From Arthrobacter sp. zg-Y769 (GTDB lineage Bacteria; Actinomycetota; Actinomycetes; Actinomycetales; Micrococcaceae): DNA of 64,000 bases. Below the pieces are notes generated by a model. It worked only from the letters and a program-made list of their open reading frames with translations, had not been told where the DNA came from and ran no database searches. A program made the translations under genes and the position numbers. The stretch spans positions 310,001 through 374,000 of the forward strand of contig NZ_JAJJOE010000003.1 of assembly GCF_020907405.1 (NCBI RefSeq). Reading direction: 5' to 3'. Of the stretch, positions 9,533 to 40,390 are shown piece after piece (position 1 is the stretch's first letter; every line of letters begins with the position of its first letter).

Positions 9533-9838
9533 TTACTTGGCCTTTTCGAGGATCTCGACCAGGCGCCACCGCTTGGTAGCGGACAGCGGCCGGGTCTCGG
9601 CGATCAGCACGAGGTCACCAATGCCGGCAGCGTTCTGCTCGTCATGGGCCTTGCGCTTCTCGGTCCGGCGAATAACCTTGCCGTAAAGGGCGTGCTTCAC
9701 GCGGTCTTCAACCTGGACGACGATGGTCTTGTCCATCTTGTCCGAGACCACGTAGCCGCGTGCGGTCTTCCGGTACCCGCGGGCATCGGCGCCGTTTGCG
9801 TCAGTTGTCACTGCTGCCTCATTCTTGTTTTCGCTCAC
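9533..9838 (-). CDS. rpsQ: 30S ribosomal protein S17 (uS17)
   Basis: 16S rRNA-binding protein of the 30S body, 101 aa. The core reads [19 protein letters not shown] and [21 protein letters not shown], as in S17, with a short Ala/Asn-rich N-terminal extension. The start is GTG at 9836-9838, overlapping the rpmC stop as GTGA. Confidence 0.96.
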
Positions 9839-10164: not shown

Positions 10165-10166
10165 TT

Positions 10167-15623: not shown

Positions 15624-18600
15624 TCAGTGTGTGCGGTCCTCCTCGGGGGTCTGCATCCGCGGCGGTTCCGGCACCGTGCCTTCCCCGCCGCCGGTGTTCG
15701 GGCCGCCGGACGCCAACGGGGTACTCCCCTGTGCCGGCGGCGACTGCGTGTAGCCGGAAACGGGGCTAGGTGGTGTGGTGTTCCCCGGTTCGTCCGTCCG
15801 GACGCGTGTCAGCCGCCAGACGGCCAGGGCGATCAGCCCGATGCCCAGCAGTGCCAGAAGCAGGAAGGTGTAGCCGCGCAGGTACCAGAGCACCGCCAAC
15901 GCAACACCCGCTGCACCCCAGAGGGTGAACAGTCTCTTGCTGGCGAGCAGACCGAACGCCAGGAGCCCCGCATGCGCCACCAGAGCCCAGAGCTGCCGTC
16001 CCCCTCCCCCGGAAATGACCGTGGAGAGCCCGCTGGCGGAAAGGATGACGGCCGAAACCGCCAGGACCACGGTGCCCCGCTGGTCGCGCTGGCGAAGGAA
16101 CTCATAGGCAGCCATCCCGGCCAGGACTGCGGCCCAATACTGCAGTGACCAGAATCCGCTGACCCCGCCCAGGGCGAGCCAGCCGATCCGCTGCACTGCG
16201 AGTGCGGTCACGAGTACCGCCGCCTGGACAGCCGGCTCGCGGAACCGGCGGGGAACTTCGAGCAGGGCAAGGGCCACGGCAGCGACCACGGTCAGTGCAC
16301 CGGCCGCGGCTGACGCATCCGGAGCCATTGCAGGTATGCCGGCCAGAGCCGGGATAAGGGCGGAAGCCGAGCCCAGGATCCGCCGGCGCAGCCGGCCGGG
16401 GAAAACGGCCGGGGACGCGGCTCCACCGGGCTGCGACGCTTCGACCGGATGGACGGGAGTGAGGAGACGGACCCCTTGGAGAACAGCGGCAGCCGCCCAG
16501 ATCGGCAGGAGGTACGCGAAGCCCGCCTCCCCCAGGCCTGCCAGGACTGTGTCAAAGAGTCCCTGGAACAGGAACACCATGCCCACCGTGAGCATGGGAG
16601 CCAGCCCAACGGCCAGCCACGGGCGGCTGCGGGTGTAGGAGAGAACCAGGAAGATCGCTCCGCCCAGGATGAACGCGGCGGCCGGCAGGAAGCTGTTCTC
16701 CGCGAACGGGGGGATCACCATCACGGCGACGGTGTAAACGCATGCAGCTGCCAGCAGGGCCGTACGGGTGGGCCTGTCCAGCGACCGGCGTGCTTCCCCG
16801 CACATGGCCCCCGCGGCCAGGGCAAGCAGGACCGCCCCAACCCCTCCAACCGAGAGGATCGGATCCGGGATCGGCCCCAGGATGCTGAACTCCAGCAGGT
16901 CGGTAAGGACCAGCGGAAGCGCCGCCAGCGCATACGCTGCCGGATAGATCACCCAGGCTGACCGCGGATGGCTGCCCATCCGGCCCCGGACCAACACCGC
17001 AGCAGCAGTGATGAGAAGCAGGAACAGATGAAGGGCCACGACCCCGCGGTGGACAGCGCTTCCGGCCTGGAGTCCGTAATAGGCCGGAAGCAGTGCCAGC
17101 AGCACCAGGCTTAGCCACTGCGACGTTTCGGAGTATCCGGCTGCGTCCAGGCGGCGGTGCAGCAGTGTGCGGACCAGTTGCTGCACCGCAAGCGCCACCC
17201 CGCCGGCAATGTACAGCCCGTACATACCTGCTCCAAGGTCGGCGGCCGCGAGGACCGTCAGGACCACTATCAGGCCCTGCACTCCGAGCAGGTAGGGTCC
17301 ACGGTTCGGCTCGTCCCCCTTCAACGCCAGGTACGCACAGTAGGCCAGTGCTGCAAGGACCAGCAGTTCGTAGCCCTGCAGTCCCAGAATGCCGGCGCCC
17401 ACGGCTGTCGCAGCGGCAAATCCTGCCAGTGCCGCTGCCCGATAGCTGCCGGAAAGCAGCAGCGACGTGGCCGTGTTTGCGGCCAACGCGGTCCAGAGCA
17501 ACGCCAACGTCCAGCCGGTTCCCTGTCCCTCGATTCCACGGGAACCGATTGTTGCGAGCAGCACCACCACTGCGGACGCCGTGAGGAACCCGGCAGCGGA
17601 CTGAATCGTCCTGCCCCGCCGCAGCCCGACGACGGCAGCCAGCTGGCTGAGCACTCCCACAGCGGCGGCGCACAGGACAAGGAACATCAGCATGCCGCTT
17701 CGCCCTGTCGGTCCCTGCAATGCCAAATATGCCAGGGGAACTCCCGCGGATGCGGCCAGACCGCCCCACCGCGCCCACGATGCGAGGCCCAGGGGGTCCA
17801 GCCTCCCGGCAAGGAGGGTCCGCAGCACCTGCCCGACGGCGACGGCTACGGCCACCGCAGCGAAAACCTGATGAACGTCGCCGGTCAGGTCAGCAGCCGC
17901 CAGCCCGGCCAGGACAACAGCCAGGACCTGGGCAGCCAGGAGATAGGCGCCGCGGAAGGGATTATCCCGCCCCAGGATGAGGTACGTGCAGTAGGCAAGG
18001 GCCACCGTCAGCAGGATCCCGTAGCCCGGGATCCCAAGGATCCCTGCTCCGACGACGGCGGCGGCGGCGAAGCCGGCAGGTGCCGTCAGTGCCGCCCAGC
18101 TGCGCCGGAGCATCAGTGCCGTGAGGAGGTTGGCGGCCAGTGCTCCTGCGAGGACAGCCAGGGTGGCAACCGCTGCTCCGCTTTCGTCCACTGTCCGCAC
18201 CCCGATGGCCAGCAGCAGCACCAGGGCTGCTGCAGCGGCAGCGCCGGTTTTCGGTTCGTGCTCCCGGCGTGTGCCGCCGGCATTCCCGGCCGGCATACCG
18301 GCAGAGGCACCGAACGCGGGGGCTCCCTCGCTGCCGTGGAAACCAAAGCGGGTCCGGCCCGCGGCACCAAGCGTGTAGGCGCTTTGGGTGAGGACCGCGG
18401 AACCGGCGCCGATGAGCAGCAGGACAACTCCGGTACCCCAGCGTGCCGCCGTGTAAGTGAGGATGTAGTAAAGCGGCGGCAGCATCGCCAGCACGGCCAG
18501 GGTCGCCCACAGAAGTGTCCGGGACAATCCGAGCCCGCGGAGTTTCCGGTCCAGGATGATCCGCAGCAGATGCTCGACCGCCAGGCAAACCGCCATGGCG

Positions 18601-21242
18601 ATGAAAATCCCGTGCACTCCTGCTCCGAGGTCTGCCGTTATCAGCGCAGCCAGGGCGACAAGCTGGGTCTGTCCTGCCGCTATGTAGTAGGTCCGGTGCG
18701 GTTTGGGCGCCGGCTTCCATGCCAGCACCGCGCAGTAGCAAAGAGCGGCGGCTGCAAGCAGCTCGTAGCCCCTGATACCCAGGACACCCGCTCCGATCAG
18801 CGCCGCAGCCGCAAATCCGGCAGGCGCAGCCGCAGCATACCGACCGCCGGGCCGCAGCGCGGATGTCAGTACATTTCCGGCCACAACGGTCCATAGCCCC
18901 ACCAGGGTCAACACCGTTCCCGGCGACTCCTGGAAGCGAAGCTGCAGGGTCAGCAGCGCGGCAGCCGCAGCCGCTGCACTGATGGCGGCACCCGAAAAAT
19001 GTTCCGGCTTTCCACGCCTGGTGCGGAGAACCGAAACGACCTGGTTGACCGTCAGGGCAAGGACAGCCGCAGCCAGGGCCCAGGCTTCTGCGTTCACCCC
19101 GTCCACCCCGGCAAGTGCCGCAAGGACAGTCAGCGGTACCAGCAGGACCGCCGCAGCGCGCGCGGCCAGGACGAACACGGGGCGTTGCTCCGCACGGCCC
19201 CGCACCGCGCGGACCACCAGATAGGCCCCAAGGACTGCGGTGGCCAGGACACCCGGCCACAGTGCGCGGCCGGGCATCAACATGTTCGGCACGAAGGCGA
19301 GGACAACCGGCACCAGGACAGCGAACTCAAGGCGTCCGCCCAGTTTCCAGGCGGCGGCGAGATACGTGCCCAGGACTACGAGGGCTGTCCCGGTGAACGC
19401 AGCGGAACTTCCCGAAGCCTGCCACTCGCGAAGCACGTACCAGAGTCCGGCCGCCAGTGCCGTGCACGCCTGCAGGACCAGCAGGGCAGCCACATCCACG
19501 CGGAAGAACCTGCGGGCAGCCACTTCGGGAGCAACAACCGGCTTCTTCCTGAGGCTGACAGCGGGTTCAGCCGCGGATCCGGATCCGGATACCGGTGCCG
19601 TGGGTGCGGCCTGTGCGGGAGGTGCCTGTGCGGGCAGTTCCGGCGGGGCGGGCGGCGCCGACCCCGGCTCTCCGCCGCCTGACGCGGCCGTAGCGTGCGG
19701 GCCGGCATCCCTGGCGGATACCGGTTCTGCCGTCGGGGGAAGGTTTTCGGTTTCCCGGTCCAACGGCAGCCCGGTGCTCCGGGAGGCCACCTGCAGCAGG
19801 GCCGCGGCGCCGTACACGGGCCTGCGCAGCAGGACCCCTGCGGTCTGTGCCGCCACCTGCACTGCGAAGGCCAGCAACGTCAACTGCGTACTGTCCGTAA
19901 AGGAATAGAACAGAGCCGTAAGGCCCACGGTGCCCGCAGCCCTCAATCCGTAGCTGTTGACGAGCTGATCCCGGGCGGGACCCTGCCCCAGCATCACGGC
20001 GTAATAGAGGGCGAAGGCGAGGAACAGTACGCCCAGCTGCGCCGAGCTCAACTGCCCGGCGATCTGGACGGAAGCGATGGCCGTGGCCGGAACCAGGTAC
20101 CGGTGGGAACGGACAAAGGCATCAACATAGAGATTGTTCAGCCATCCGGGACGCCGGACGGCGGCGAGGCTGATCAAGGTGGCGAGGATAACGGTGAAGA
20201 GGAAATACCAGACGATTCCCCACCTCAGTGCCGCACCCGAGGCCAGGCCCGAGGACAGCAGGAACGTCAGGGCCAGATAGGTGACCACCCTGCTTTCGAT
20301 TCTTGCCGCGGCGTAGGCGAACGCCGCCGTTCCAACCACCGAAGTGACCAGCCAGGCCGCGGGACCGTCCGGAAGCACAAAATTGAACAAGGCGAGTCCG
20401 ACCACCGGAATCAAGGCCAGCCCCGTACCGGTGAAGGCAACGGCTGCGGGCCGAAGGCGGGTGCTGCGGGAGTAAACGACCAGTCCGGATATGTAGAACA
20501 GTGCAGTGACAGCGACGACGCCGAAGAAACGGGCCTCTGCGGGAATGGCCAGGCCGATGAACAGCGCCGCCGCAGCCACCAGCAGGAGGCTGGCGGAGTA
20601 GAGCGTGATGTTGATGTTGCGGAGGTCCCGGCGGTGCTTTTCTTCCTTCAGCTGCGCTTCCGTCTTGACCGGCGGAGCCGGCCTGGGAGCAACCGGCCGG
20701 GGCGGGACCGGAGCACTCGGGGTTCGGGCGCCGGGCCCTCCGGCAAAGGCGGGCTGCGAAGCTGCTGCAGGGGACGAAGCCGCTGCAGGGGACACGGACG
20801 AGGGAGCCGCATATGAGGAGACATACGTAGCAGCGGGTGCAAGGGGCACGGCGGGCGGCATGGTTCCAGGGGCGGCCGCCGGGGCCGGGACTGTCGCAGC
20901 CACGGGTGCCTGCCCAGCAGGAGCAGGTACAGCAGGAGCAGGTGCAGCAGGGGCCTGCCCCGCAGGAGCAGCAGGGGCCTGCCCCGCAGGAGCAGGTGCA
21001 GCAGGAGCCGGTGCGGCGGACACCCCCGAAGCCGCGGAAGGCTGCGGGGCACCAGCCGGAGCCGGCAATCCGGAACGCGTTGCCGCGTCCCTGAAGCCCG
21101 CCCGGTAGCCTTCTTCGTAGATCTGGGCCGGCGGCGGCAGCGGCCTGCCGTGGCTGTCCACGGTTTGGACCGCTTTCTTGCCTGCCGCCCGCCCTATGGC
21201 GAAACTGGCCGCGACTGCGGCCAGGAAAAGGAAGACCCCCAT
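15624..21242 (-). CDS. giant polytopic membrane protein with internal repeats
   Basis: An 1872-aa protein. I start at MGVFLFLAAVAASFAIGRAAG (ATG 21240-21242, GGAAGG upstream), not 13 codons earlier. Order of parts: one N-terminal helix; a Gly/Tyr/Phe-containing segment; about 130 residues of Ala/Pro-rich linker; a charged stretch (KTEAQLKEEKHRRDLRNIN); then dozens of hydrophobic segments to near the C-terminus, broken by one Pro/Ala-rich loop near residue 520. The protein ends in a hydrophilic Pro/Gly-rich tail. Three homologous units of about 150 aa occur (see repeat entries). No catalytic motif seen. It may belong to the poorly characterised actinobacterial large membrane proteins annotated by a SCO7613-type C-terminal domain, but that is a guess from overall form. 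Confidence 0.8.
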   Translation of the reverse strand: MGVFLFLAAVAASFAIGRAAGKKAVQTVDSHGRPLPPPAQIYEEGYRAGFRDAATRSGLPAPAGAPQPSAASGVSAAPAPAAPAPAGQAPAAPAGQAPAAPAPAVPAPAGQAPVAATVPAPAAAPGTMPPAVPLAPAATYVSSYAAPSSVSPAAASSPAAASQPAFAGGPGARTPSAPVPPRPVAPRPAPPVKTEAQLKEEKHRRDLRNINITLYSASLLLVAAAALFIGLAIPAEARFFGVVAVTALFYISGLVVYSRSTRLRPAAVAFTGTGLALIPVVGLALFNFVLPDGPAAWLVTSVVGTAAFAYAAARIESRVVTYLALTFLLSSGLASGAALRWGIVWYFLFTVILATLISLAAVRRPGWLNNLYVDAFVRSHRYLVPATAIASVQIAGQLSSAQLGVLFLAFALYYAVMLGQGPARDQLVNSYGLRAAGTVGLTALFYSFTDSTQLTLLAFAVQVAAQTAGVLLRRPVYGAAALLQVASRSTGLPLDRETENLPPTAEPVSARDAGPHATAASGGGEPGSAPPAPPELPAQAPPAQAAPTAPVSGSGSAAEPAVSLRKKPVVAPEVAARRFFRVDVAALLVLQACTALAAGLWYVLREWQASGSSAAFTGTALVVLGTYLAAAWKLGGRLEFAVLVPVVLAFVPNMLMPGRALWPGVLATAVLGAYLVVRAVRGRAEQRPVFVLAARAAAVLLVPLTVLAALAGVDGVNAEAWALAAAVLALTVNQVVSVLRTRRGKPEHFSGAAISAAAAAAALLTLQLRFQESPGTVLTLVGLWTVVAGNVLTSALRPGGRYAAAAPAGFAAAALIGAGVLGIRGYELLAAAALCYCAVLAWKPAPKPHRTYYIAAGQTQLVALAALITADLGAGVHGIFIAMAVCLAVEHLLRIILDRKLRGLGLSRTLLWATLAVLAMLPPLYYILTYTAARWGTGVVLLLIGAGSAVLTQSAYTLGAAGRTRFGFHGSEGAPAFGASAGMPAGNAGGTRREHEPKTGAAAAAALVLLLAIGVRTVDESGAAVATLAVLAGALAANLLTALMLRRSWAALTAPAGFAAAAVVGAGILGIPGYGILLTVALAYCTYLILGRDNPFRGAYLLAAQVLAVVLAGLAAADLTGDVHQVFAAVAVAVAVGQVLRTLLAGRLDPLGLASWARWGGLAASAGVPLAYLALQGPTGRSGMLMFLVLCAAAVGVLSQLAAVVGLRRGRTIQSAAGFLTASAVVVLLATIGSRGIEGQGTGWTLALLWTALAANTATSLLLSGSYRAAALAGFAAATAVGAGILGLQGYELLVLAALAYCAYLALKGDEPNRGPYLLGVQGLIVVLTVLAAADLGAGMYGLYIAGGVALAVQQLVRTLLHRRLDAAGYSETSQWLSLVLLALLPAYYGLQAGSAVHRGVVALHLFLLLITAAAVLVRGRMGSHPRSAWVIYPAAYALAALPLVLTDLLEFSILGPIPDPILSVGGVGAVLLALAAGAMCGEARRSLDRPTRTALLAAACVYTVAVMVIPPFAENSFLPAAAFILGGAIFLVLSYTRSRPWLAVGLAPMLTVGMVFLFQGLFDTVLAGLGEAGFAYLLPIWAAAAVLQGVRLLTPVHPVEASQPGGAASPAVFPGRLRRRILGSASALIPALAGIPAMAPDASAAAGALTVVAAVALALLEVPRRFREPAVQAAVLVTALAVQRIGWLALGGVSGFWSLQYWAAVLAGMAAYEFLRQRDQRGTVVLAVSAVILSASGLSTVISGGGGRQLWALVAHAGLLAFGLLASKRLFTLWGAAGVALAVLWYLRGYTFLLLALLGIGLIALAVWRLTRVRTDEPGNTTPPSPVSGYTQSPPAQGSTPLASGGPNTGGGEGTVPEPPRMQTPEEDRTH
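17060..17513 (-). repeat. internal protein repeat, unit 3
   Basis: Third copy of a roughly 150-aa membrane unit. Its landmarks are LLWTALAANTATSLLL, then GFAAATAVGAGILGLQGYELL, then AYCAYLAL, then AAADLGAGMYGLYIAGGVALAV, then RTLLHRRLDAAG and LLPAYYGLQ. Confidence 0.75.
17710..18175 (-). repeat. internal protein repeat, unit 2
   Basis: Second copy, with the landmarks VLAGALAANLLTALML, GFAAAAVVGAGILGIPGYGILL, AYCTYLIL, AAADLTGDVHQVFAAVAVAVAV and RTLLAGRLDPLGLASW in the same order and spacing. Confidence 0.75.
18450..18915 (-). repeat. internal protein repeat, unit 1
   Basis: First copy, with LVGLWTVVAGNVLTSAL, GFAAAALIGAGVLGIRGYELL, CYCAVLAW, TADLGAGVHGIFIAMAVCLAV and RIILDRKLRGLGLS, then LPPLYYIL. 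Spacing to the next copy is about 750 nt. Confidence 0.75.
20911..21017. repeat. Ala/Pro-coding tandem DNA repeats
   Basis: A run of short repeats inside the giant membrane gene. The clearest is a perfect 24-bp tandem duplication, 20947-20970 and 20971-20994, encoding repeated P-A-G-Q-A-P-A-A. The unit also contains the inverted repeat GGGGCCTGCCCC. Such tracts are prone to copy-number change. Confidence 0.8.
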
Positions 21243-21637
21243 GAAACTGCTACCTTCCGGTTGAGCTCGACTGCAGACCATCCTAGGGTGCCGCAGCTCA
21301 CATCCCGGTAACTATTCGATCCCGTTGTGGGCAAGGTTCCGCACGGGCAGCTTCCGGGGCCCCTGTGCAGGCATAGTCCCGACACGGCACGTCCACAACC
21401 GGCGGCGGTCCCGGGCGGGGACGCCCCGGAGGAAACCCCGGAGGGAAACACAGGAGGAAAACCCCGGAGGGAAACCCTGGAGGAAAACCCCGGAGGGAAA
21501 CACCGGAGGAACCTGCCGGTCTGCCCGCGGGCCGTTCCGGCCCGGATACCGAACTGGTAGCGTCGGCGCAGGACGGCCCCGTGGGAGGCAGGACGGCCCC
21601 GCGGGAGGCACCAGACGAACGGGAAGGCCTTTCGGCC
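21243..21637. other. divergent intergenic region between the giant membrane gene and the EPSPS-ligase operon
   Basis: A 395-nt region between two divergent genes that must hold both promoters. It contains the 13/26-bp direct-repeat array at 21424-21513. Near the minus-strand gene, TAGGAT (minus, 21280-21285) could be a -10 box. No gene is recognisable. Confidence 0.55.
21424..21513. repeat. 13/26-bp direct repeat array upstream of the EPSPS-ligase gene
   Basis: Copies of a 26-bp unit begin at 21436, 21462 and 21488, with a half unit at 21424. Each unit is CCCCGGAGGGAAA followed by a 13-bp variant of the form NNNNGGAGGAAAA, so the array can also be read as seven imperfect 13-mers. The plus strand carries seven GGAGG-like boxes. 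The 13-bp period argues against coding. Confidence 0.9.
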
Positions 21638-24600
21638 ATGTATCTTTCGGTTCTTGGAACGCACGCCGGCATCTCCGGAACGGTGCAGGTTCCCAACTCC
21701 AAATACCACGCCCACCGGGCGCTGATACTGGCTTCCCTTGCGCCCGGCACCAGTCGGATTTCCGGGCTTACCGACGCCCGCCATGTGCAGTACACGGTAG
21801 CCGCGCTGCGCGGGCTCGGGACGGAAATAGAGGTGCAGGATGACACCTTCGTTGTCCATGGCGGGCCGTACCGCCCGCAGCGCGCCACCGTCTCCGCCGG
21901 CAGCTCCGGAACCACGCTGTACTTTATGGCCGGACTTGCGTCGCTGGGAACACGCGACGTCGTCGTGACCGGGCAGAAATACTTCCAGCGCCGTCCCATC
22001 GGCGCACTGCTGGCAGCCCTGGGCGAGATGGGGGTGGACATCGCCGCGCAGGGGAACTGCCCTCCCCTGCGCGTGGCCCACGGCCGGCCGCTCGGGGGCG
22101 TTGTCCACATATCCGGAACGCTGTCACAGTGGATTTCCGGGCTCCTGCTGTTGGCGCCCTTTGCCCGTACGGAAACCACTGTGGTGGTGGACGGCCCGCA
22201 GAACGAGGGCAGCTATGTGGCACTGACCCTCGCCATGATGGCGCACTTCGGACTGCAGGTGGAGGCCTCGGCGGACTTTCGGCGCTTTCGGATCCCGCCG
22301 AACCAGCAGGCGGTGCCGGCGGATCTGCAAATGCCGCCGGATATCGGGTCGGCCGCGTTCGGCCTGGCTGCCGCGGCCCTGCATCCCGCGGACATAGCCC
22401 TCACCGGCCTGCACGCAGTCTCCTCGGCCGGCTCGGACCACCCCGAGGCGGACTTTCTGGATCTGGCAGCGCAAATGGGGGTCCCCATGGCCTACGATCC
22501 GGCGGCGGATGCGGTTCGGGTCCGCCACCCGGGCCTGGACCTGCAGCCGGTGGACGTGGACTGCCGCCGCGTGCCGGACATGCTCCCTGTGCTGTCCGTG
22601 CTGGCCTGCTTCGCGACGGGCCGCAGCGTCTTCCGCAACATTGACCATGTGCGGATGAAGGAGTCCGACCGGGTGGCCGCCATGCTGCAGCTGAACTCCA
22701 TGGGCGCCGACCTCACCGTGGAGGGCTCCACCCTGGCGATCCGCGGCGTCGGCGGCCTCGACGGAGCGGACCTCTCCTCCTTTAACGACCACCGGGTGCT
22801 GATGTCCCTGGCCGTGGCGGCGTCTGCAGCGGAGGGACGCAGCACCCTCACCTATCCGAATGCCTACCGCATCTCCTATCCCGAATACCTGGAGGCCATG
22901 ACAGCCTTCGGGCTGCGGATGCAGGTCGAAGACGGAGCGATCCGGCGTCCCCGCCCGAGCCGGCCCGCCCGCCCCGCCCGGACCGCCAGGGGCACCCGTT
23001 CCCGAAGTATCACCGGACCGGCCGCCGTTGAGGCATCCGCAGCCGTGACCGGCCCGGACTGGGTGCGGCGGTGGGCCGCCGAACGGCCCAACGAAACGGC
23101 GGTGGCCGACGGCGGCACCGGCGCATCGGGGCACCTCACCTGGGCCGAACTCGACGCACAGGCGGACCGTGCGGCAGCCGCACTGCTGGAGCTGGGGGTG
23201 TCATCAGGTGACCGGGTGGCCTTCCAGCTGCCCAACCGGAGCGAATTCGTGATCCTCACCGTGGCCGTCCTTCGCCTGGGCGCCGTCGCCGCGCCGGTCA
23301 TGCCGATTTTCCGGGAGCGCGAGGTCGCCTTGGCACTGCACCGGGCGGGCGCCCGCGTCTTCGTTGCCGTTGAAGAGTTCCGCGGACGCCGGCCGGCCGA
23401 GGAACTCGCGGGGCTGCTGCAGCGCGCGGACGGAACCGATGCGGTGCCGCCTCCCCCGCTGGCGGATGTCCTCGTGCTGCGGGATCCGGCGTCGCCGCTT
23501 CCCCTCCCCTCCGTTCCCGGCGGCCCGCGGTTCACGGACTGGGGCAGTGCCCTGCGCCGGGCGCATCCCGGGACCGTGCTCCGTGCACGGCCTGCCCCGG
23601 ATGCAGGGGACGCAGCACAGCTGCTGTTCACCTCCGGCACCTCGGGCGAACCGAAGGGTGTGGTGCACCGCCATGAAACCCTTAGCCGTGCGGCGGCCAT
23701 GGCCGCAGCGCACCTGGGCCTCACCAGCGACGACGCCGTCTTCATCCCGTCGCCACTGGCCCACCAGACCGGCTTCCTCTACGGCATGTGGCTCTCGTTC
23801 GTTCTCGGCTGCCCGCAGATCCTGCAGCCGGTCTGGGACGCCGAACAGGCGTTGAAGCTCATCCGCGGCTGGCGGGCCACCTTCGTCCAGGCGGCCACCC
23901 CGTTCCTGACCGACCTGGTTGCCGCCGTCGACGCAGGTGCCCCCGCTCCGGCCAGCCTGCGCATCTTCGTAGCCACCGGGGCGGCGGTTCCCCGGCACCT
24001 GGCCGAGCGGGCCACCCGCGTCCTGGGTGCCGGGATCTGCGGTGCGTTCGGAACCACCGAAACCTGCCTGGGCACCCTGGCCTCCCCCGGGGATGAACCG
24101 GTACAGATGTGGGGCACCGACGGGCGCGCGCTGGAGGGGGTGCGGACCCGGATTGTCGACGACGCCGGGCATCTCCTGCCGCCCGGTGCGGAAGGCAACT
24201 TCGAACTCAGCAGCGCTACCGTCTTTGACGGATACCTTGACCGCCCGGACCTGACCAAGGAAGCCTTTACCGAAGACGGCTGGTACCGCACGGGCGACAC
24301 GGCGATCCTCGACGACGCCGGATTCCTGCGCATTACCGGGCGGGTTCGCGACATCATCAACCGCGGAGGGGAGAAAATCCCGGTGGCAGAAATCGAGCAG
24401 CTGCTCTACCGGCATCCTGCCGTGCGGGATGTTGCCCTGGCCGCCATGCCCGATGAACGGCTGGGCGAGCGGGCCTGCGCCTTTGTGGTCCCGGCGGCAG
24501 GCATGCACCCGCAGCTGGCGGATCTCACCGCTTTCCTCGACCGGCACCGCGTCTCGAGGCATTACTGGCCCGAACGCCTCGAACTGCTTGATGCCATTCC

Positions 24601-24685
24601 CCGCAACGCAGTCGGCAAGGTGCAGAAGTTCCTGCTGCGCGAAGCCGCCCGCAGTTTCCCGGCACCCGATTGGAGCACCCGATGA
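21638..24685 (+). CDS. fusion of an EPSP-synthase-like domain and an acyl-CoA ligase
   Basis: A 1015-aa two-domain protein. Residues 1 to about 430 match 3-phosphoshikimate 1-carboxyvinyltransferase folds: Lys22 and Arg27 in PNSKYHAHRAL, AGSSGTTLYF (86-96), Arg119 in RRPIG, Asp314, Glu342 and Arg345 in KESDR, and Arg386 in NDHR. Differences from E. coli AroA at substrate sites are Tyr23 for Ser23, Tyr95 for Arg100, one missing Ser before Gln164, Glu190 for Ser197, and Arg411/Ile412 around Lys411. A Pro/Arg-rich linker (about 434-465) joins a full adenylating enzyme: LLFTSGTSGEPKGVVH (about 661-676), YRTGD (about 881), TGRVRDIINRGGEKIP (about 899) and the C-terminal PRNAVGK lysine (about 993). 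I infer a shikimate-type acid as substrate, dehydrated or otherwise eliminated and then activated as its CoA thioester. The ATG at 21638 has GGAAGG upstream. Confidence 0.9.
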   Translation: MYLSVLGTHAGISGTVQVPNSKYHAHRALILASLAPGTSRISGLTDARHVQYTVAALRGLGTEIEVQDDTFVVHGGPYRPQRATVSAGSSGTTLYFMAGLASLGTRDVVVTGQKYFQRRPIGALLAALGEMGVDIAAQGNCPPLRVAHGRPLGGVVHISGTLSQWISGLLLLAPFARTETTVVVDGPQNEGSYVALTLAMMAHFGLQVEASADFRRFRIPPNQQAVPADLQMPPDIGSAAFGLAAAALHPADIALTGLHAVSSAGSDHPEADFLDLAAQMGVPMAYDPAADAVRVRHPGLDLQPVDVDCRRVPDMLPVLSVLACFATGRSVFRNIDHVRMKESDRVAAMLQLNSMGADLTVEGSTLAIRGVGGLDGADLSSFNDHRVLMSLAVAASAAEGRSTLTYPNAYRISYPEYLEAMTAFGLRMQVEDGAIRRPRPSRPARPARTARGTRSRSITGPAAVEASAAVTGPDWVRRWAAERPNETAVADGGTGASGHLTWAELDAQADRAAAALLELGVSSGDRVAFQLPNRSEFVILTVAVLRLGAVAAPVMPIFREREVALALHRAGARVFVAVEEFRGRRPAEELAGLLQRADGTDAVPPPPLADVLVLRDPASPLPLPSVPGGPRFTDWGSALRRAHPGTVLRARPAPDAGDAAQLLFTSGTSGEPKGVVHRHETLSRAAAMAAAHLGLTSDDAVFIPSPLAHQTGFLYGMWLSFVLGCPQILQPVWDAEQALKLIRGWRATFVQAATPFLTDLVAAVDAGAPAPASLRIFVATGAAVPRHLAERATRVLGAGICGAFGTTETCLGTLASPGDEPVQMWGTDGRALEGVRTRIVDDAGHLLPPGAEGNFELSSATVFDGYLDRPDLTKEAFTEDGWYRTGDTAILDDAGFLRITGRVRDIINRGGEKIPVAEIEQLLYRHPAVRDVALAAMPDERLGERACAFVVPAAGMHPQLADLTAFLDRHRVSRHYWPERLELLDAIPRNAVGKVQKFLLREAARSFPAPDWSTR

Positions 24686-25920
24686 TTAGTGCAGCCGTCA
24701 CTGCCGATGGACGGGGCAGCAGCATCCCGGAGCCGGAGTACCTTGAGCTGCTCACGGCCGTAACAGCGTGGGTTGAGGGTCCCGGCGAGGAATGGGCCGG
24801 GATCATCGAATCCAGCGGATCGGTGCCCGATGCCCTGTGGAAGGAGCTGCGCGGAGCCGGGTTCCTCTCCCTCGCAGCACCCGCGGAGCTCGGCGGCCGG
24901 GGGCTGAGTTTCGTCCAGTGGATGGGGCTGATGGAGGTCTTTTCCCGTTCGCATGCCTCGGTCCGCATGATCGTGCACGTGGTCAACGGGACCTGGCGGG
25001 CCATGAATCCGTATGCCGACGCCGACCAGCGGCGGAAATTCGTCCTCCCGTCGGTCGCCGGCGACCTCATCGTTGCCTTCACCCTGACGGAACCCGGCAA
25101 CGGCACGGGCGCGGACATCACTGCGAGCGTGCAGCGGACGGGTGACACCTATTACCTCACCGGCCGCAAGCACCTGATCACCTTCGGAGTGCGCTGCGAC
25201 TATTGGCTGCTTTTTGCCCGTCTGGCGGGCAGCACAGGCAGCCGGGGCACCGTGGCGCTGCTGGTGGACCGGCATGCCCCCGGCGTCGAGGTGGAAGACA
25301 CGTCGGAGACCATGGGTGTCCGCGGCACCGACCATGCCTCCCTCACTTTCACCCGGACCCCCGTCCCCGTGGCCAACCGCCTCGGCGCGGAGGGGGACGG
25401 GCTGGCCGTCGCCCTGGGCGGCTTCCTCACCCCCAGCCGGATCTCCGTCGCGATGAGCTGCGTCGGCCTGGCCCAGCGTGCCCAGCAGCTCGCGGTCCGC
25501 TATGCACTGGACCGCACCACTTTCGGGAAGCCGCTCGCCGCCCGGCAGGCAGTCGCCTTCGCCCTCGCGGAGAACGCCGCCGACATCGAGGCGGCCCGGG
25601 CGCTGGCCCTGCATGCCGCCCAGGCCTGGCAGGACGGCACCGCCAATGCAGGCTCCCTTTCCTCCATGGCCAAGCTGACCGCCGTCGACATGCTCACCCG
25701 GGTAACGGACAAGGCCCTGCAGGTCCACGGCGGCGTCGGGTACTGGAAGAGCATGCCCATGGAACGCGTGTACCGCGATGCGCGGGCGCAGCGCTTCGAA
25801 GAAGGGACCAACGAAATCCAGAAGACAGTGATTGCCCGCGGCATTTTAGGCCGGGCCCAGGCGCCGTCGGCCGACGCCGGTCTGGTCCCGGAATCGGCGG
25901 CGCCCGCTGTCCGGCCCTGA
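24682..25920 (+). CDS. acyl-CoA dehydrogenase
   Basis: A 412-aa FAD-dependent acyl-CoA dehydrogenase. It contains AFTLTEPGNGTGADI (FAD/substrate region), the segment TPSRISVAMSCVGLAQRAQQ, the ALQVHGGVGYWKSMPMERVYRDAR block and the likely catalytic base in FEEGTNEIQ. The ATG at 24682-24684 overlaps the preceding stop (ATGA) and has GGAG 6 nt upstream, which I prefer to a TTG four codons earlier. Translational coupling ties it to the EPSPS-ligase fusion. In a shikimate-to-cyclohexane/cyclohexene route it would introduce a ring double bond at the CoA ester stage. The substrate is inferred, not shown. Confidence 0.93.
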   Translation: MISAAVTADGRGSSIPEPEYLELLTAVTAWVEGPGEEWAGIIESSGSVPDALWKELRGAGFLSLAAPAELGGRGLSFVQWMGLMEVFSRSHASVRMIVHVVNGTWRAMNPYADADQRRKFVLPSVAGDLIVAFTLTEPGNGTGADITASVQRTGDTYYLTGRKHLITFGVRCDYWLLFARLAGSTGSRGTVALLVDRHAPGVEVEDTSETMGVRGTDHASLTFTRTPVPVANRLGAEGDGLAVALGGFLTPSRISVAMSCVGLAQRAQQLAVRYALDRTTFGKPLAARQAVAFALAENAADIEAARALALHAAQAWQDGTANAGSLSSMAKLTAVDMLTRVTDKALQVHGGVGYWKSMPMERVYRDARAQRFEEGTNEIQKTVIARGILGRAQAPSADAGLVPESAAPAVRP

Positions 25921-25927
25921 TACCGGC

Positions 25928-27940
25928 GTGCTGGACCGGGTCTTCTCCCCAGTTTCCATCGGTTCCCTGCGCCTGGACCACCGGATCGTCATGGGCTCCA
26001 TGCACCTGAACCGTGAGGACGACCCCGGCGCGCTGGCCGCGTTCTACCGGGAGCGGGCGGCCGCCGGGGCCGGGCTTATCGTTACGGGCGGTGCCGCAGT
26101 GAACCGTGCCGGCGCCGGCGGCCCCAACTATCTGTTGATCAACGAACCCGAAGCGGCGGCGCTGGTGTCCCCGATGCTCGACGCCGTGCATGCCGCCGGC
26201 GGCAGGCTCGCCCTGCAGCTGTTCCACGCGGGACGCTATGCCCGTGAAACCACCTACGGTCTCCGCCCGGTCGCCCCGTCGGAGGTTCCCTTTTCCCGCA
26301 CCCTGCCGCGGGCACTGACGCAGGCGCAGATCGATGACACCCTTGCGGACTTCGCCGCCGGTGCCGGTACTGCGCGTGCCCTGGGGTTTGATGCCGTGGA
26401 GATCATGGGCTCCGAGGGCTACCTGATCAACCAGTTTGCCTCACCGCTGACCAACCTCCGCCGTGACCGCTGGGGCGGGGATCCGCAGCGGCGGCAGGCC
26501 TTTCCGCGGGCGGTGCTCCAGGCGGTCCGCAGCGCGGTGGGCGAAGGCTACCCGGTCATCTACCGCACGTCCGGCGCCGATTTCGTGGCCGGATCGAGCA
26601 CGCCGGAAGAATCGGCCGATCTGGCGCTGGCGCTGGCCCGGGACGGCGCCGACGCGGTCAATATCGGCATCGGCTGGCACGAGTCCAGGGTCCCCTCCGT
26701 ACAGGGCATGGTTCCGCACGGACGCTGGATGGAAATTGCGGGCGGAATCCGTGCGGCACTGGCGGCTGCGGAGGTGGCCGTCCCGGTCATTGGCAGCAAC
26801 CGGATCAACTCGGTGGAGCTGGCCGAGCGGGCCCTGGCGGCCGGGCACGCCGACCTGGTTTCCATGGCCCGGCCCTTCCTCGCCGACCCTGCGATCGTGG
26901 CTAAGTCCCGGCGCGGCGACTCGAACCTCGTCAATACCTGCATAGCCTGCAACGAGGCCTGCATCGACCGCTCGCTGGGTGCCGCACCGGTCTCCTGCCT
27001 GGTGAACCCCCGGGCCGGCCGGGAAGCCCAGTTCCCGCTGCGGCCGGTCCCGCCGCCCGGTGCGTCCCGTGTGCGCGTTGCAGTAGTGGGAGCCGGCCCG
27101 GCCGGGATGCAGGCCGCCGCAACGCTGGCGGGGTCGGGACTCAAGGTCGACCTGTACGAGCAGGAGGGCAGCATCGGCGGACAGTTCCGGCTGGCCGGGC
27201 AGGTGCCCGGCAAGGCCGACTTCCTGCAGACCATCCGTTATTTCAGCCATGAACTGGGCCGGCTGGGCGTTTCCGTCCTCGCAGGTGCCGCTCCCGACAC
27301 CGAGCAGCTGGCCGGCTACTTGCACGTGGTCCTGGCTACCGGTGTCCTGCCCCGGACCGTGGGCCTGCCCGGTGCCGGGCTGCTCCCGGTGCTGGACTAT
27401 CGGCAGGCCTTTGCCGACCCGGCGCGGCTGGGCCGCCGCGTCGTTCTTATTGGTGCCGGCGGTATTGCAGTGGACCTTTCCCGCCTGCTGGCCGACGCCG
27501 CAGTTCCCGGCGGTCCCCGGGAGGTAACCATCCTGCGCCGGGGCGGCAGGATCGGTGACGGGATCGGCCCCTCCACGCGGTGGGCGGTGCTGCAGGAGAT
27601 CCGGGCCGCCGGTGTCCGGACCCTGGCCAACACCACGCCGCTGCAGATAACCGCCGCGGGGCTTCGGGTCCGGGACCCGGACGGCGCAGCGAAGCTGCTG
27701 GCCGCGGACGACGTCGTCCTGGCCGCGGGACAGGTGTCCCACAATCCGCACGAGGCGCAGCTGACCGCACGGGGTATCCCCGTCACAGTGATCGGCGGTG
27801 CCCTGGACGCCACGGGGCTGAATGCCGTCCGGGCGTTCGAGCAGGGCCTGGCTGCCGGTACCGCGGTGGCACGGCTGCTCAACGGGAAAGGAACGCAGGC
27901 CGGCCCTGCGGTTAAAAGCAGCAGGGCCCCGCTGCCATAA
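25928..27940 (+). CDS. 2,4-dienoyl-CoA reductase-type FMN/FAD/4Fe-4S oxidoreductase
   Basis: A 670-aa protein, close in length and layout to E. coli FadH. The N-terminal FMN barrel includes VMGSMH, LFHAGRY, GSEGYLINQ (Tyr acid) and GIGWHESRVP (His). The cluster motif NTCIACNEACIDRSL with a later SCLVNPR provides four Cys for a 4Fe-4S centre. FAD/NADPH domains follow from VAVVGAGPAGMQAA and VVLIGAGGIAVDL. The GTG start lies 7 nt after the dehydrogenase stop, with a poor ribosome binding site. FadH enzymes reduce conjugated dienoyl-CoA; here I infer reduction of a cyclohexadiene-carboxyl-CoA. Last gene of the operon. Confidence 0.92.
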   Translation: MLDRVFSPVSIGSLRLDHRIVMGSMHLNREDDPGALAAFYRERAAAGAGLIVTGGAAVNRAGAGGPNYLLINEPEAAALVSPMLDAVHAAGGRLALQLFHAGRYARETTYGLRPVAPSEVPFSRTLPRALTQAQIDDTLADFAAGAGTARALGFDAVEIMGSEGYLINQFASPLTNLRRDRWGGDPQRRQAFPRAVLQAVRSAVGEGYPVIYRTSGADFVAGSSTPEESADLALALARDGADAVNIGIGWHESRVPSVQGMVPHGRWMEIAGGIRAALAAAEVAVPVIGSNRINSVELAERALAAGHADLVSMARPFLADPAIVAKSRRGDSNLVNTCIACNEACIDRSLGAAPVSCLVNPRAGREAQFPLRPVPPPGASRVRVAVVGAGPAGMQAAATLAGSGLKVDLYEQEGSIGGQFRLAGQVPGKADFLQTIRYFSHELGRLGVSVLAGAAPDTEQLAGYLHVVLATGVLPRTVGLPGAGLLPVLDYRQAFADPARLGRRVVLIGAGGIAVDLSRLLADAAVPGGPREVTILRRGGRIGDGIGPSTRWAVLQEIRAAGVRTLANTTPLQITAAGLRVRDPDGAAKLLAADDVVLAAGQVSHNPHEAQLTARGIPVTVIGGALDATGLNAVRAFEQGLAAGTAVARLLNGKGTQAGPAVKSSRAPLP

Positions 27941-32812: not shown

Positions 32813-33595
32813 CTAGCTGCGGGCACTCAGGGCCGAGGTGATCGTGGCCGAGGCCTGCTGCAGGTACGGAAGCACGCGGGCAGCCGCTTCTTCCAGGGTA
32901 AGGCCCGCGGTCGCCTGCATGGAGGTGTTCAGGGCAGCCACCACCTCCCCCTTGGGATCCAGGACGGGAACGGCCACGGAGCGCAGTCCCAGTTCCAGCT
33001 CCTGGTCCACGATGGCCCAGCCCCGTTCCCGCGCCTGCGCCACCAGGACGCGCAGCCGGTCCGGGTCCGTGACCGTGCGTTCCGTCAGCGGGCGCAGACG
33101 GACTTGTGAAACATAGTCCTCGAACCGGTCCTCCGGCAGCCCGGCCAGCAGGACCCTGCCCATGGACGTGGCATAGGCGGGGAACCGGGTCCCCACGCTG
33201 ATGCCAACGGTCATCAGCCGGCGGGTATGGATGCGGGCAATATAGACAATCTCGTCCCCGTCCAGCACGGACGCCGACGTGGATTCGGAAATCTCCCGGG
33301 ACAGGTCTTCCAGCACCGGCTGCGCGAGCTGGGGCAGGGACTGGCCGGACAGATAGGAATACCCCAGCTGCAGGACCAGTGCCGTCAATTCAAAGGTCCG
33401 CCCGTCGGTGCGTACGTAGCCGAGTTCCACAAGGGTGAGCAGGAAGCGGCGGGCCGTGGCCCGCGTCAGCCCTGTCCGGCGGGAAACCTCGCTCAGGGTC
33501 ATCTGCACGTTGTCCGCGTCGAATGCCCGGATCACCACCAGGCCGCGGGCCAGCGACTGCACAAACTGGTCGCTGGCCGGCACCGTCCCGCTCAC
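32813..33595 (-). CDS. pcaR: IclR-family regulator of protocatechuate catabolism
   Basis: A 260-aa regulator. The N-terminal winged helix reads MTLSEVSRRTGLTRATARRFLLTL (about 31-54). The effector domain carries typical PcaR/PcaU/PobR features (LSGQSLPQLAQPVLEDLS, YIARIHTRRLMTVGISVGTRFPAYATSMGRVLL). It is the last gene of the pcaHGBDCFIJ operon, 19 nt after pcaJ, and starts with GTG after GGGGGA. PcaR-type regulators respond to beta-ketoadipate or protocatechuate; the actual ligand is not shown by sequence. Confidence 0.9.
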   Translation of the reverse strand: MSGTVPASDQFVQSLARGLVVIRAFDADNVQMTLSEVSRRTGLTRATARRFLLTLVELGYVRTDGRTFELTALVLQLGYSYLSGQSLPQLAQPVLEDLSREISESTSASVLDGDEIVYIARIHTRRLMTVGISVGTRFPAYATSMGRVLLAGLPEDRFEDYVSQVRLRPLTERTVTDPDRLRVLVAQARERGWAIVDQELELGLRSVAVPVLDPKGEVVAALNTSMQATAGLTLEEAAARVLPYLQQASATITSALSARS

Positions 33596-33614
33596 CTGTC
33601 CCCCATGTGATTAG

Positions 33615-34280
33615 TTACTTCCCGCTGTCGGCGGCGCCGCGGATCAACGGGATGTCCATCTTTGCCGCCAGCTCTTCGAACGTGGTGCCGAAGGTCTCGC
33701 GGACGTGGACACCGTCCTCCTTCAGCAGGAAGACCGCTTCACTAGTGTAGACGCGGGTCACACACCCGACGCCGGTAAGCGGGTAGCTGCATTCCTTCAC
33801 CAGTTTGCTCAGTCCGTCCTTGGTGAACAGGGACATCATCACGTAGACATCCTTGGCACCGGTCGCCAGGTCCATTGCACCGCCGACCGCCGGGATGGCA
33901 TCCGGGGCACCGGTGTGCCAGTTCGCGAGGTCACCGGAGGCGGAAACCTGGAAGGCGCCCAGCACACACACGTCCAGGTGCCCGCCGCGCATGATCGCGA
34001 AGGAGTCCGCATGGTGGAAATAGGCGGCACCCGGCAGCTCGGTCACCGGAATCTTGCCGGCGTTGATCAGGTCCGGGTCCACCTCCCCGCCGGCGGCTTC
34101 CGGGCCCATGCCCAGCATCCCGTTTTCGGTATGCAGGGTGATGTTTTGTTCCGGCCGCAGGTAGTTGGAGACCAGGGTGGGCTGGCCGATGCCCAGATTC
34201 ACGAAGGATCCGGGGGCGATATCACCAGCCACCAGTGCGGCGAGGTCGTTCTTGCCCAGCTTTTCGGTCTGGTTGCTCAT
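33615..34280 (-). CDS. pcaJ: 3-oxoadipate CoA-transferase, subunit B
   Basis: Beta subunit of the enzyme transferring CoA from succinyl-CoA to 3-oxoadipate, 221 aa. The catalytic Glu lies in TENGMLGMGP, and SFVNLGIGQPTLV is typical of the family. The ATG overlaps the pcaI stop (ATGA), as usual for the two subunits. Confidence 0.94.
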   Translation of the reverse strand: MSNQTEKLGKNDLAALVAGDIAPGSFVNLGIGQPTLVSNYLRPEQNITLHTENGMLGMGPEAAGGEVDPDLINAGKIPVTELPGAAYFHHADSFAIMRGGHLDVCVLGAFQVSASGDLANWHTGAPDAIPAVGGAMDLATGAKDVYVMMSLFTKDGLSKLVKECSYPLTGVGCVTRVYTSEAVFLLKEDGVHVRETFGTTFEELAAKMDIPLIRGAADSGK

Positions 34281-34960
34281 GCTGCAGCCGGCGCTTTCTC
34301 CCGGTCCACGCGGACCAGGCTGTTGACGTAGATTCCGGGGGTCACCACTACTTCAGGGTCCATCTCGCCGATGTCGACGATCTCGCGGACCTGCACAATT
34401 GCGGTCTTCGCGGCGGCGGCCATGATCGGTCCGAAGTTCCTGGCGGTCTTCCGGTAGACCAGGTTGCCGGCCTTATCTGCCCGCAGGGCCTTGACCAGGG
34501 CGAAGTCCGCGTGCAGCGGGGTTTCGAAGACGTAGCCGCGGCCGTCGATCATCCGCGTTTCCTTGCCTTCGGCCAGCGGGGTGCCGTAGGCGGTGGGCGT
34601 AAAGAACCCGCCGATGCCGGCACCGGCGGCGCGGATGCGCTCGGCCAGGTTGCCCTGGGGCACGAGCTCCAGTTCGATCTCGCCGGCGCGGAACTTCGCG
34701 TCGAAGATCTGCGAGTCGGACTGCCGCGGGAAGGAGCAGATGATCTTCTTCACCCGGCCCGCGCCGATGAGGGCGGCCAGCCCGTGTTCGCCGTTGCCGG
34801 CGTTGTTGTTGACGACGGTCAGGTCCCTGGCACCCTGGCGCAGCAGCGCCTCGATGAGTTCCACGGGCTGTCCGGCCTGGCCGAACCCGCCGATCATGAC
34901 GGTGGCGCCGTCGTGGATGGGCGCAACTGCCTCATCAACGTCCTGCACAATGTTGAGCAC
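34277..34960 (-). CDS. pcaI: 3-oxoadipate CoA-transferase, subunit A
   Basis: Alpha subunit of 3-oxoadipate:succinyl-CoA transferase, 227 aa. It has the glycine-rich coenzyme-A-transferase signature VMIGGFGQAGQPVELIEAL and VVNNNAGNGEHGLAALI. Start is GTG at 34958-34960. Lies between pcaF and pcaJ. Confidence 0.94.
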   Translation of the reverse strand: MLNIVQDVDEAVAPIHDGATVMIGGFGQAGQPVELIEALLRQGARDLTVVNNNAGNGEHGLAALIGAGRVKKIICSFPRQSDSQIFDAKFRAGEIELELVPQGNLAERIRAAGAGIGGFFTPTAYGTPLAEGKETRMIDGRGYVFETPLHADFALVKALRADKAGNLVYRKTARNFGPIMAAAAKTAIVQVREIVDIGEMDPEVVVTPGIYVNSLVRVDREKAPAAA

Positions 34961-34992
34961 GGTTTTTCCTTACGTCTTCGGTGGCGGGATTC

Positions 34993-36192: not shown

Positions 36193-36250
36193 CGGTACTC
36201 CTTGAGCTGGAAAGCGAAAACTGGAAGAGGGAGAAGGGACATTCCGCGGC

Positions 36251-36655: not shown

Positions 36656-36659
36656 TGCG

Positions 36660-38881: not shown

Positions 38882-38883
38882 CG

Positions 38884-40389: not shown

Positions 40390-40390
40390 G

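What the first reader, a model, noticed from the sequence alone, without database searches (positions are those of the whole stretch)
21638..27940. Operon built on an EPSP-synthase-like/acyl-CoA-ligase fusion, with acyl-CoA dehydrogenase and dienoyl-CoA reductase
Seen: one uninterrupted 1015-aa frame joins a complete EPSPS-type fold to a complete adenylating CoA ligase. An acyl-CoA dehydrogenase follows through an ATGA overlap, and a FadH-like enzyme starts 7 nt later. Known: the shikimate-to-cyclohexanecarboxyl-CoA routes of ansatrienin- and asukamycin-type clusters use an EPSPS homologue, a CoA ligase, an acyl-CoA dehydrogenase and a dienoyl-CoA reductase (from memory). Inferred: this operon converts shikimate or a close relative into a cyclic, partly reduced acyl-CoA, with the first two steps channelled in one polypeptide. 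ChcA- and ChcB-type genes are absent here, so the product may be a cyclohexene or hydroxylated acid. Alternatively, those genes lie elsewhere. I know of no described enzyme with this fusion.
Basis: partly seen in the sequence, partly recalled or inferred. Interest (0 to 1): 0.92.

Follow-up and report, generated by a model that had tools for sequence, protein, structure and literature searches.

The report
Operon for a shikimate-derived six-ring starter
A bacterium of the Arthrobacter group carries, in two places of its genome, the enzymes expected to turn the aromatic-pathway compound shikimate into a saturated six-ring acid that starts fatty chains, with the first two enzymes fused into one protein; the pathway is of a known kind and is inferred from genes alone, but its unusual first enzyme can now be tested.

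Summary
Window 21638-24685 is one 1015-aa frame joining an EPSP-synthase-like domain to an AMP-forming CoA ligase; an acyl-CoA dehydrogenase (ATGA overlap) and a FadH/OYE-type reductase follow. The fusion is real: 37 of 48 compared loci have it.

(1) A ChcA-type enoyl reductase is not missing: it lies on another contig of this genome with a second ligase and a FabF-type ketosynthase; one Streptomyces relative has all six genes in a row. Across 149 family genomes the reductase is in 13 of 13 with the fusion and 1 of 136 without. (2) The fusion is not unique: two Streptomyces copies adjoin modular polyketide synthases, at least one phoslactomycin-like (CHC-CoA starter). (3) The EPSPS-like domain is not a normal AroA: in 48 or 49 of 49 rows Ser23 is Tyr, Arg100 Tyr, Ser169 deleted, Ser197 Glu and Lys411 Ile, while the catalytic core is kept; this fits unphosphorylated shikimate.

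Reactions and end product (perhaps omega-cyclohexyl fatty acids) are inferred, not shown.

The parts
21668..22900 (+). EPSP-synthase-like domain of the fusion protein (residues 11-421 of 1015)
   Evidence: Pfam PF00275 267.5 bits; TIGR01356 311.8 bits, cut-off 287.25; altered active site, for example Ser169 deleted in 49 of 49 family rows
22931..23047 (+). linker between the domains (about residues 432-470), Arg/Pro/Ala-rich, partly disordered in the model
   Evidence: pLDDT under 50 at residues 435-453; third-position changes and in-frame gap against L005
23066..24619 (+). AMP-forming acyl-CoA ligase domain, best curated model cyclohexanecarboxylate-CoA ligase
   Evidence: PF00501 and PF13193; TIGR03208 451.7 bits, below its cut-off 792.3; A3 Lys 45 of 45 rows, A10 Lys 43 of 43 aligned
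21638..24685 (+). whole fusion gene, 1015 aa
24682..25920 (+). acyl-CoA dehydrogenase, 412 aa from ATG 24682
   Evidence: PF00441, PF02770, PF02771; catalytic-type Glu in 38 of 38 aligned rows
25928..27940 (+). FadH/old-yellow-enzyme type flavoprotein (dienoyl-CoA-reductase-like), 670 aa, with four Cys as in a 4Fe-4S motif
   Evidence: PF00724, PF07992; four Cys invariant in 34 of 34 rows
21426..21511 (.). 26-nt tandem repeats (3.3 copies) upstream of the fusion gene; role unknown

Best explanation
The operon is half of a shikimate-to-cyclohexanecarboxyl-CoA (CHC-CoA) pathway; the other half is an unlinked operon on contig 17 (G000:C17:7135-10883: ChcA-type enoyl reductase, second acyl ligase, FabF-type ketosynthase). 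Proposed working: the EPSPS-like domain, refitted for shikimate without its 3-phosphate, promotes the first 1,4-elimination of water (a step recalled from labelling work on ansatrienin) to a dihydroxy-cyclohexadiene carboxylate; the fused ligase makes the CoA ester; the FadH-like enzyme, the acyl-CoA dehydrogenase and the SDR enoyl reductase then remove and reduce the remaining functions to a saturated ring; the ketosynthase starts or extends a chain on it (omega-cyclohexyl fatty acid or a similar ring-tailed acyl product). Shown here: gene content, conservation, co-occurrence, intact catalytic residues, altered EPSPS active site. Inferred: every reaction, their order, and the end product.
For: Conserved order fusion or gene pair-ACAD-(SDR)-OYE: of 46 loci with the EPSPS-like gene, counting only those with enough downstream DNA, ligase 44 of 45, ACAD 37 of 39, SDR 30 of 39, OYE 32 of 37, same strand. 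SDR in 14 of 149 Micrococcaceae genomes: 13 of 13 with the fusion, 1 of 136 without (the Fisher p of 8e-18 ignores relatedness). Five loci without a linked SDR (Arthrobacter L005, L008, L020; Cellulomonas L006, L007) all have it elsewhere in the genome. L154 (Streptomyces) holds six genes in one run, fusion-ACAD-SDR-OYE-KAS-LIG2; L177 (another family) holds fusion-ACAD-SDR-OYE-KAS. The own genome has one other ketosynthase of this type at E 1e-20, 40% identical. Copies directly adjoining modular PKS genes: L148 and L150; in the genome of L150 (G525) the PKS has an AT ahead of its first KS, with an APH-type kinase, an aminotransferase and a P450 nearby, and phoslactomycin PKS loads CHC-CoA (passages of PMC7496768 and PMC9730843). 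Own canonical AroA present (363.9 bits). Active-site contrast of 49 family and 10 AroA rows.
Against: No product or activity is known to me for these genes in this genus, and the held library gave no report of omega-cyclohexyl lipids in Arthrobacter (listings only). TIGR01356 aroA scores over its cut-off, and most PEP-site residues are kept, so a carboxyvinyl transfer is not excluded. ChcB was not sought. In four loci (Conexibacter L044 and the MAGs L028, L035, L036, which may be incomplete) the genome has no SDR of this type at E 1e-50. One genome (G004) has SDR-LIG2-KAS without the fusion at E 1e-100 or the ACAD at E 1e-60, and Streptomyces G278 has the SDR without an EPSPS-like gene at E 1e-60, so the halves are not strictly inseparable. 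Copies L152 and L153 lack ACAD, SDR and OYE nearby, and L031, L148 and L151 lack OYE. No direct comparison with the ansatrienin or other published CHC genes could be made.
Confidence: 0.72

Rival explanations
1. Same pathway, but the product is a specialised metabolite or a partly reduced (cyclohexenyl or hydroxylated) acid rather than a CHC-primed fatty acid.
For: Two Streptomyces copies adjoin PKS genes and three others lie some 9-12 kb from them; L021 and L025 are inside a larger cluster, in L021 with ACP, FabI-like reductase, aminotransferase and a second ketosynthase. ACAD and OYE can leave ring double bonds.
Against: Next to the SDR the window genome has only the FabF-type KAS and a ligase, and no called ORF over 838 aa in the 20 kb fetched there; the SDR accompanies the fusion in 13 of 13 family genomes.
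Confidence: 0.35
2. The operon degrades cyclohexane- or cyclohexenecarboxylate: ligase and dehydrogenase as in AliA/AliB, near the protocatechuate operon.
For: Best curated model for the ligase is cyclohexanecarboxylate-CoA ligase, and the ACAD matches a cyclohexane-1-carbonyl-CoA dehydrogenase model weakly; pca/pob-type genes follow at 32813-42482.
Against: Both scores are far below cut-off (451.7 of 792.3; 186.2 of 650); no ring-hydrolysing gene in the three-gene operon (not sought in the rest of the genome); relatives travel with ketosynthases and PKS; tuf, fusA and two ORFs that read as rpsG and rpsL stand between it and the pca genes.
Confidence: 0.06
3. The N-terminal domain is simply a second working AroA (for example glyphosate-tolerant) joined by accident to an unrelated ligase.
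For: TIGR01356 over cut-off; Lys22, Arg27, Asp313, Glu341, Arg344, His385 and Arg386 kept.
Against: A normal AroA is present; four positions invariant in 10 of 10 AroA rows (Ser23, Asp49, Arg100, Ser169) and two common there (Ser197 7 of 10, Lys411 9 of 10) are uniformly changed in at least 48 family rows; conserved partnership with ACAD, SDR and OYE.
Confidence: 0.05

Closest known systems
CHC-CoA biosynthesis genes of ansatrienin-type clusters (five-gene cassette of Streptomyces collinus, as I recall it: ansJ, ansK, ansL, ansM, chcA)
   Same: Same five enzyme types as recalled: EPSPS homologue, CoA ligase, acyl-CoA dehydrogenase, dienoyl-CoA reductase, SDR enoyl reductase.
   Different: Two of the genes fused; SDR unlinked here and accompanied by a FabF-type ketosynthase and a second ligase; no PKS in the window. 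Gene names and functions are from memory; searches found no paper on them, three recalled papers are not held, and no sequence comparison was possible.
CHC-CoA genes of phoslactomycin-type clusters (a fused gene named plmJK is a dim recollection, unverified)
   Same: Two Streptomyces loci (L148, L150) have the fused gene next to a modular PKS; the window EPSPS-like domain is 63 and 61% identical to theirs.
   Different: They are polyketide clusters; the window operon lies between ribosomal-protein and elongation-factor genes. The label phoslactomycin-like rests on gene content of G525 and, less fully, G518, not on a named record.
omega-cyclohexyl fatty acid synthesis of Alicyclobacillus and Curtobacterium
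   Same: Would use CHC-CoA as primer (recalled); omega-cyclohexyl lipids are reported for both (passages of PMC10562698 and PMC3426160).
   Different: Their chromosomes could not be reached by name here; Arthrobacter is not known to me to make these lipids.
AroA (EPSP synthase)
   Same: Fold and most catalytic residues.
   Different: Ser23, Asp49, Arg100, Ser169, Ser197 and Lys411 replaced or deleted in at least 48 of 49 family rows (one row has a gap at Ser23).
AliA/AliB cyclohexanecarboxylate degradation
   Same: Best curated model of the ligase.
   Different: Scores below cut-off; opposite metabolic direction; partners differ.

Membership tests
Shikimate-to-CHC-CoA pathway (ansatrienin/phoslactomycin type) | EPSPS homologue and CoA ligase acting together | tested here: met
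   Fusion in the window; ligase fused or close on the same strand in 44 of 45 eligible loci; joint action itself not shown
Shikimate-to-CHC-CoA pathway (ansatrienin/phoslactomycin type) | acyl-CoA dehydrogenase and dienoyl-CoA-reductase-type flavoenzyme | tested here: met
   Window 24682-25920 and 25928-27940; 37 of 39 and 32 of 37 eligible loci
Shikimate-to-CHC-CoA pathway (ansatrienin/phoslactomycin type) | ChcA, an SDR enoyl-CoA reductase | tested here: inconclusive
   An SDR with Tyr-x6-Lys in 34 of 34 rows, best curated model FabL (below its cut-off), is in the genome and in the operon of relatives; identity to S. collinus ChcA could not be measured
Shikimate-to-CHC-CoA pathway (ansatrienin/phoslactomycin type) | ChcB enoyl-CoA isomerase | not tested
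   No reference sequence at hand; recalled to lie outside the cluster in S. collinus
Shikimate-to-CHC-CoA pathway (ansatrienin/phoslactomycin type) | formation of CHC-CoA from shikimate | not testable with these tools
   Needs biochemistry
AroA (EPSP synthase) | score over the aroA equivalog cut-off | tested here: met
   311.8 against 287.25 bits
AroA (EPSP synthase) | conserved S3P/PEP site | tested here: not met
   Ser23, Arg100, Ser169 in 10 of 10 AroA rows; Tyr in 48 of 48 aligned, Tyr in 49 of 49, deleted in 49 of 49 family rows. The ligand roles of these residues are recalled
Cyclohexanecarboxylate degradation (Ali/Bad) | ligase and dehydrogenase over curated cut-offs | tested here: not met
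   TIGR03208 451.7 of 792.3 and NF043006 186.2 of 650 bits
Modular PKS cluster with CHC starter | PKS genes beside the CHC genes | tested here: not met
   Neighbours in the window are rpsJ, an 1885-aa ORF without family match, tuf, fusA, and pca/pob-type genes

The most novel reading that the evidence does not exclude
The EPSPS-like domain is a shikimate dehydratase: an EPSP-synthase scaffold that lost the 3-phosphate site and performs a 1,4-elimination on free shikimate, perhaps with transient use of PEP, handing the diene acid to the fused ligase; and soil bacteria outside the known producers (Arthrobacter, Cellulomonas, Sinomonas, Eremiobacterota) use it, with a dedicated ketosynthase where one is linked, to build ring-tailed membrane or storage lipids.
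Probability: 0.4. Interest if true: 0.78.

Novelty: new variant of a known kind. Interest (0 to 1): 0.58.

Why it matters
The first step from shikimate to cyclohexanecarboxylic acid has, to my knowledge (recalled, not searched exhaustively), no purified enzyme behind it. A family of 49 aligned rows with a uniform set of changed and kept residues, most of them fused to the next enzyme, makes that step directly testable in one protein. It also predicts ring-tailed lipids or metabolites in cultivable Arthrobacter and Cellulomonas and in uncultured Eremiobacterota, and warns that the aroA model would name this protein a normal EPSP synthase.

Tried and rejected
Tried without use: a plasmid of Alicyclobacillus acidocaldarius as a way to an omega-cyclohexyl producer; only the plasmid was searchable and it had no SDR match. 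Paper searches for the fusion, for gene names and for omega-cyclohexyl lipids in these genera gave no description (seen as listings). Passages only were seen of PMC10562698, PMC6780079, PMC10295569, PMC9730843, PMC4581413, PMC7284804, PMC7496768, PMC5118839, PMC3426160 and PMC5663706; of PMC8983318 passages and one section. Rejected: sequencing error; a plain second AroA; CHC degradation. First mis-read: by eye I took a Tyr for position 124; the alignment showed Arg124 is kept and Arg120 is changed. L032 was wrongly labelled fused in the first tree and corrected in the second. Crude motif patterns for SDR, ACAD, ligase, OYE and KAS gave misses that alignment columns did not bear out. The G221 and G311 SDR hits (54%) have none of the other operon genes in the stretch fetched and were not counted as members. 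The AroA controls are eight of the 20 hits listed, chosen for spread of organisms, plus E. coli and the own AroA; being hits to this domain they may lean towards it.
Full report
Observation. The frame 21638-24685 is open and codes for 1015 aa with EPSP_synthase, AMP-binding and AMP-binding_C domains. The ACAD overlaps by ATGA and the OYE/FadH-like gene starts 7 nt after it. The operon is on the + strand between an 1885-aa ORF without family match and rpsJ on one side and tuf, fusA and ORFs that read by eye as rpsG and rpsL on the other, all on the - strand. The same site is used in Arthrobacter relatives L005, L008 and L020 and, on the tuf side, in Sinomonas L009.

Is the fusion real? Yes. Full-length relatives are at 87 and 86% (Arthrobacter), 73 and 72% (Cellulomonas), 69% (Arthrobacter gandavensis), 66% (Sinomonas), 59-60% (Streptomyces) and 55-58% (Eremiobacterota MAGs), best-segment identities (which kept the best 80 of 574 confirmed loci; rows from L038 on were ligase matches only, except L044). 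In a frame test of 48 loci, 37 are open from the EPSPS start to the ligase end and 11 are not. Ten of the 11 read as separate genes, in Solirubrobacterales, Conexibacter, Chloroflexi and other MAGs; the eleventh, L026, is a frame change in an Eremiobacterota MAG whose closest relatives are fused. The tree has four changes between fused and unfused, at least three of them forced by well-supported branches, so the history is not a single clean fusion. In that tree the window lies in an 11-row clade (100/100) of Micrococcaceae that also holds Cellulomonas, nested inside Arthrobacter (99/98, suggesting gene transfer), and one genome of another family; its sister, with moderate support (87/95), is 12 Streptomyces rows.

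The missing reductase. Between ACAD and OYE, 30 of 39 eligible loci have an SDR. Searched in the window's genome, the Streptomyces SDR finds one clear counterpart, 65% identical, on contig 17; the next by score is 32%. It is the first gene of a compact set: SDR 7135-7965, ligase 7998-9650, ketosynthase 9651-10883. The SDR's best curated model is FabL enoyl-ACP reductase (245.1 bits, cut-off 328), and Tyr151 and Lys158, spaced Tyr-x6-Lys, are invariant in 34 of 34 rows; that this spacing marks enoyl reductases, and that ChcA is such an SDR, is recalled. The ketosynthase is FabF-like (486.7 bits, cut-off 493.75), keeps Cys-His-Lys-His in 14 of 14 rows, and is 56-70% identical to ketosynthases that end or flank this operon in Streptomyces, Streptosporangiaceae, L014, L027 and L177; the Eremiobacterota operons have a more distant one (33-36%). 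The only other match in the own genome at E 1e-20 is 40% identical. In L154 all six genes stand in a row. The SDR-ligase-ketosynthase set was also read in two further genomes of the genus (L179, L181).

Co-occurrence. In 149 Micrococcaceae genomes, 16 match the fusion query at E 1e-100; three (G005, G060, G133) match the ligase part only and were dropped, leaving 13. The SDR is in 14: those 13 and G004. Two same-genus genomes (G080, G146) lack both. In 392 Streptomyces genomes the EPSPS-like gene is in 11 (12 places, 11 of them in open frames of 997-1127 aa) and the SDR in 13. Ten of the 11 have the SDR at 76% or more to the Streptomyces query; the eleventh (G255) has a partial EPSPS-like gene with a stop. 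The other three SDR genomes are G278 (76%, near a contig end beside a gene that looks like an NRPS) and G221 and G311 (54%). In 396 genomes of the order, 5 have the EPSPS-like gene. These counts do not correct for relatedness.

Link to CHC. In L148 and L150 the fusion directly adjoins a large PKS gene; in the genomes of L145, L146 and L152 PKS genes lie some 9-12 kb away, and L152 also has a crotonyl-CoA reductase (575.9 bits, cut-off 378.55). In G525 (L150) the PKS has an AT ahead of its first KS, and an APH-type kinase, an aminotransferase and a P450 lie near; in G518 (L148) a similar aminotransferase was found, the PKS and P450 rest on motifs only, and of two further ORFs scanned one is SDR-like and one HipA-kinase-like. 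The phoslactomycin PKS has a loading module that selects cyclohexanecarboxyl-CoA (passages of PMC7496768; PMC9730843). That G525 and G518 are phoslactomycin-like is my inference. In L147 a FabH (350.7 bits, cut-off 292.1) precedes the fusion. A passage says that a CHC-CoA gene cassette allows doramectin without CHC feeding (PMC4581413); that this is the five-gene ansatrienin set is recalled. The flanks of L149 (L164, L165) showed no KS motif.

The EPSPS-like active site. Against 10 AroA rows (E. coli, the own AroA and eight from plasmid-collection records), the 49 family rows keep Lys22 and Arg27 (48 of 48 aligned), Gly96, Arg124, Ser170, Gln171, Asp313, Lys340, Glu341, Arg344, His385 and Arg386 (49 of 49), but Ser23 is Tyr (48 of 48 aligned), Asp49 His (48 of 49), Arg100 Tyr (49 of 49), Ser169 deleted (49 of 49), Ser197 Glu (49 of 49) and Lys411 Ile (48 of 49). 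In the AroA rows these six are Ser 10, Asp 10, Arg 10, Ser 10, Ser 7 and Lys 9 of 10. One paper section read states that the central domain binds the carboxylate and phosphate of S3P and the terminal domain both hydroxyls (PMC8983318); which residues do so is recalled (Ser169 and Ser197 phosphate, Arg27 carboxylate, Asp313 and Lys340 hydroxyls), and a search for a paper with these residue names found none. On that footing the pattern fits shikimate without phosphate. Since most PEP-site residues stay, an enolpyruvyl-assisted elimination is not excluded. A canonical AroA (363.9 bits) and two MurA genes are also in the genome.

Other enzymes. Ligase A3 Lys 45 of 45 and A10 Lys 43 of 43 aligned, ACAD Glu 38 of 38 aligned, the four OYE Cys 34 of 34 (2 ligase and 3 ACAD rows had gaps). 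The ligase's best curated model is for a six-ring acid (below cut-off) and its best solved matches are aryl-acid adenylating enzymes; fatty-acid ligases follow closely in both lists.

Against. No chemistry is known to me; no held paper was found that reports such lipids in Arthrobacter. Conexibacter and three MAG loci lack the SDR; in three of these four (L035, L036, L044) a luciferase-like gene stands upstream (the Pfam match was made on the L019 member), which may replace it. G004 shows the second set without the first. L152 and L153 lack ACAD, SDR and OYE nearby, and L031, L148 and L151 lack OYE; beside L152 a short ORF looks by eye like the end of an OYE gene.

Verdict. A CHC-CoA-type pathway, of a known kind, with an altered EPSPS fused to its ligase and, here, split over two loci with an extra ketosynthase. 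Confidence 0.72 for the pathway; about half of that for a fatty-acid end product.

Noticed in passing
window 15624-21281 (-): 1885-aa ORF with many hydrophobic stretches and no Pfam or NCBIfam match at E 0.001; counterparts beside the operon in L005, L008 and L020.
   Followed up: no
window 21426-21511: 26-nt tandem repeats just upstream of the fusion gene; a further 20-nt repeat at 21568-21610.
   Followed up: no
window 32813-42482 (-): 4-hydroxybenzoate/protocatechuate (pob/pca) type genes after an ORF that reads as rpsL, with a PcaR-type regulator.
   Followed up: partly
L044 9052-9981; also L019, L035, L036: Luciferase-like gene directly upstream of the unfused EPSPS-like and ligase genes; the three of these genomes tested (L035, L036, L044) lack the SDR.
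   Followed up: partly
L178 7295-11356: Genome G004 has the SDR-ligase-ketosynthase set without the fusion operon; its ligase matches in two frames.
   Followed up: partly
L021 6496-21105, L025 6928-20903: In Streptosporangiaceae the operon sits in a larger cluster; in L021 with an ACP, FabI-like reductase, PaaA/PaaC-like protein, class IV aminotransferase and two ketosynthases, in L025 relatives of these by clustering.
   Followed up: no
L152 7742-10957 (-) and 2358-3722 (+): Streptomyces albus NRRL B-1811 has a second fusion copy without nearby ACAD, SDR or OYE, in a stretch with a crotonyl-CoA reductase and near PKS genes.
   Followed up: partly
L006, L007: Cellulomonas copies fall inside the Arthrobacter clade, suggesting horizontal transfer.
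   Followed up: partly
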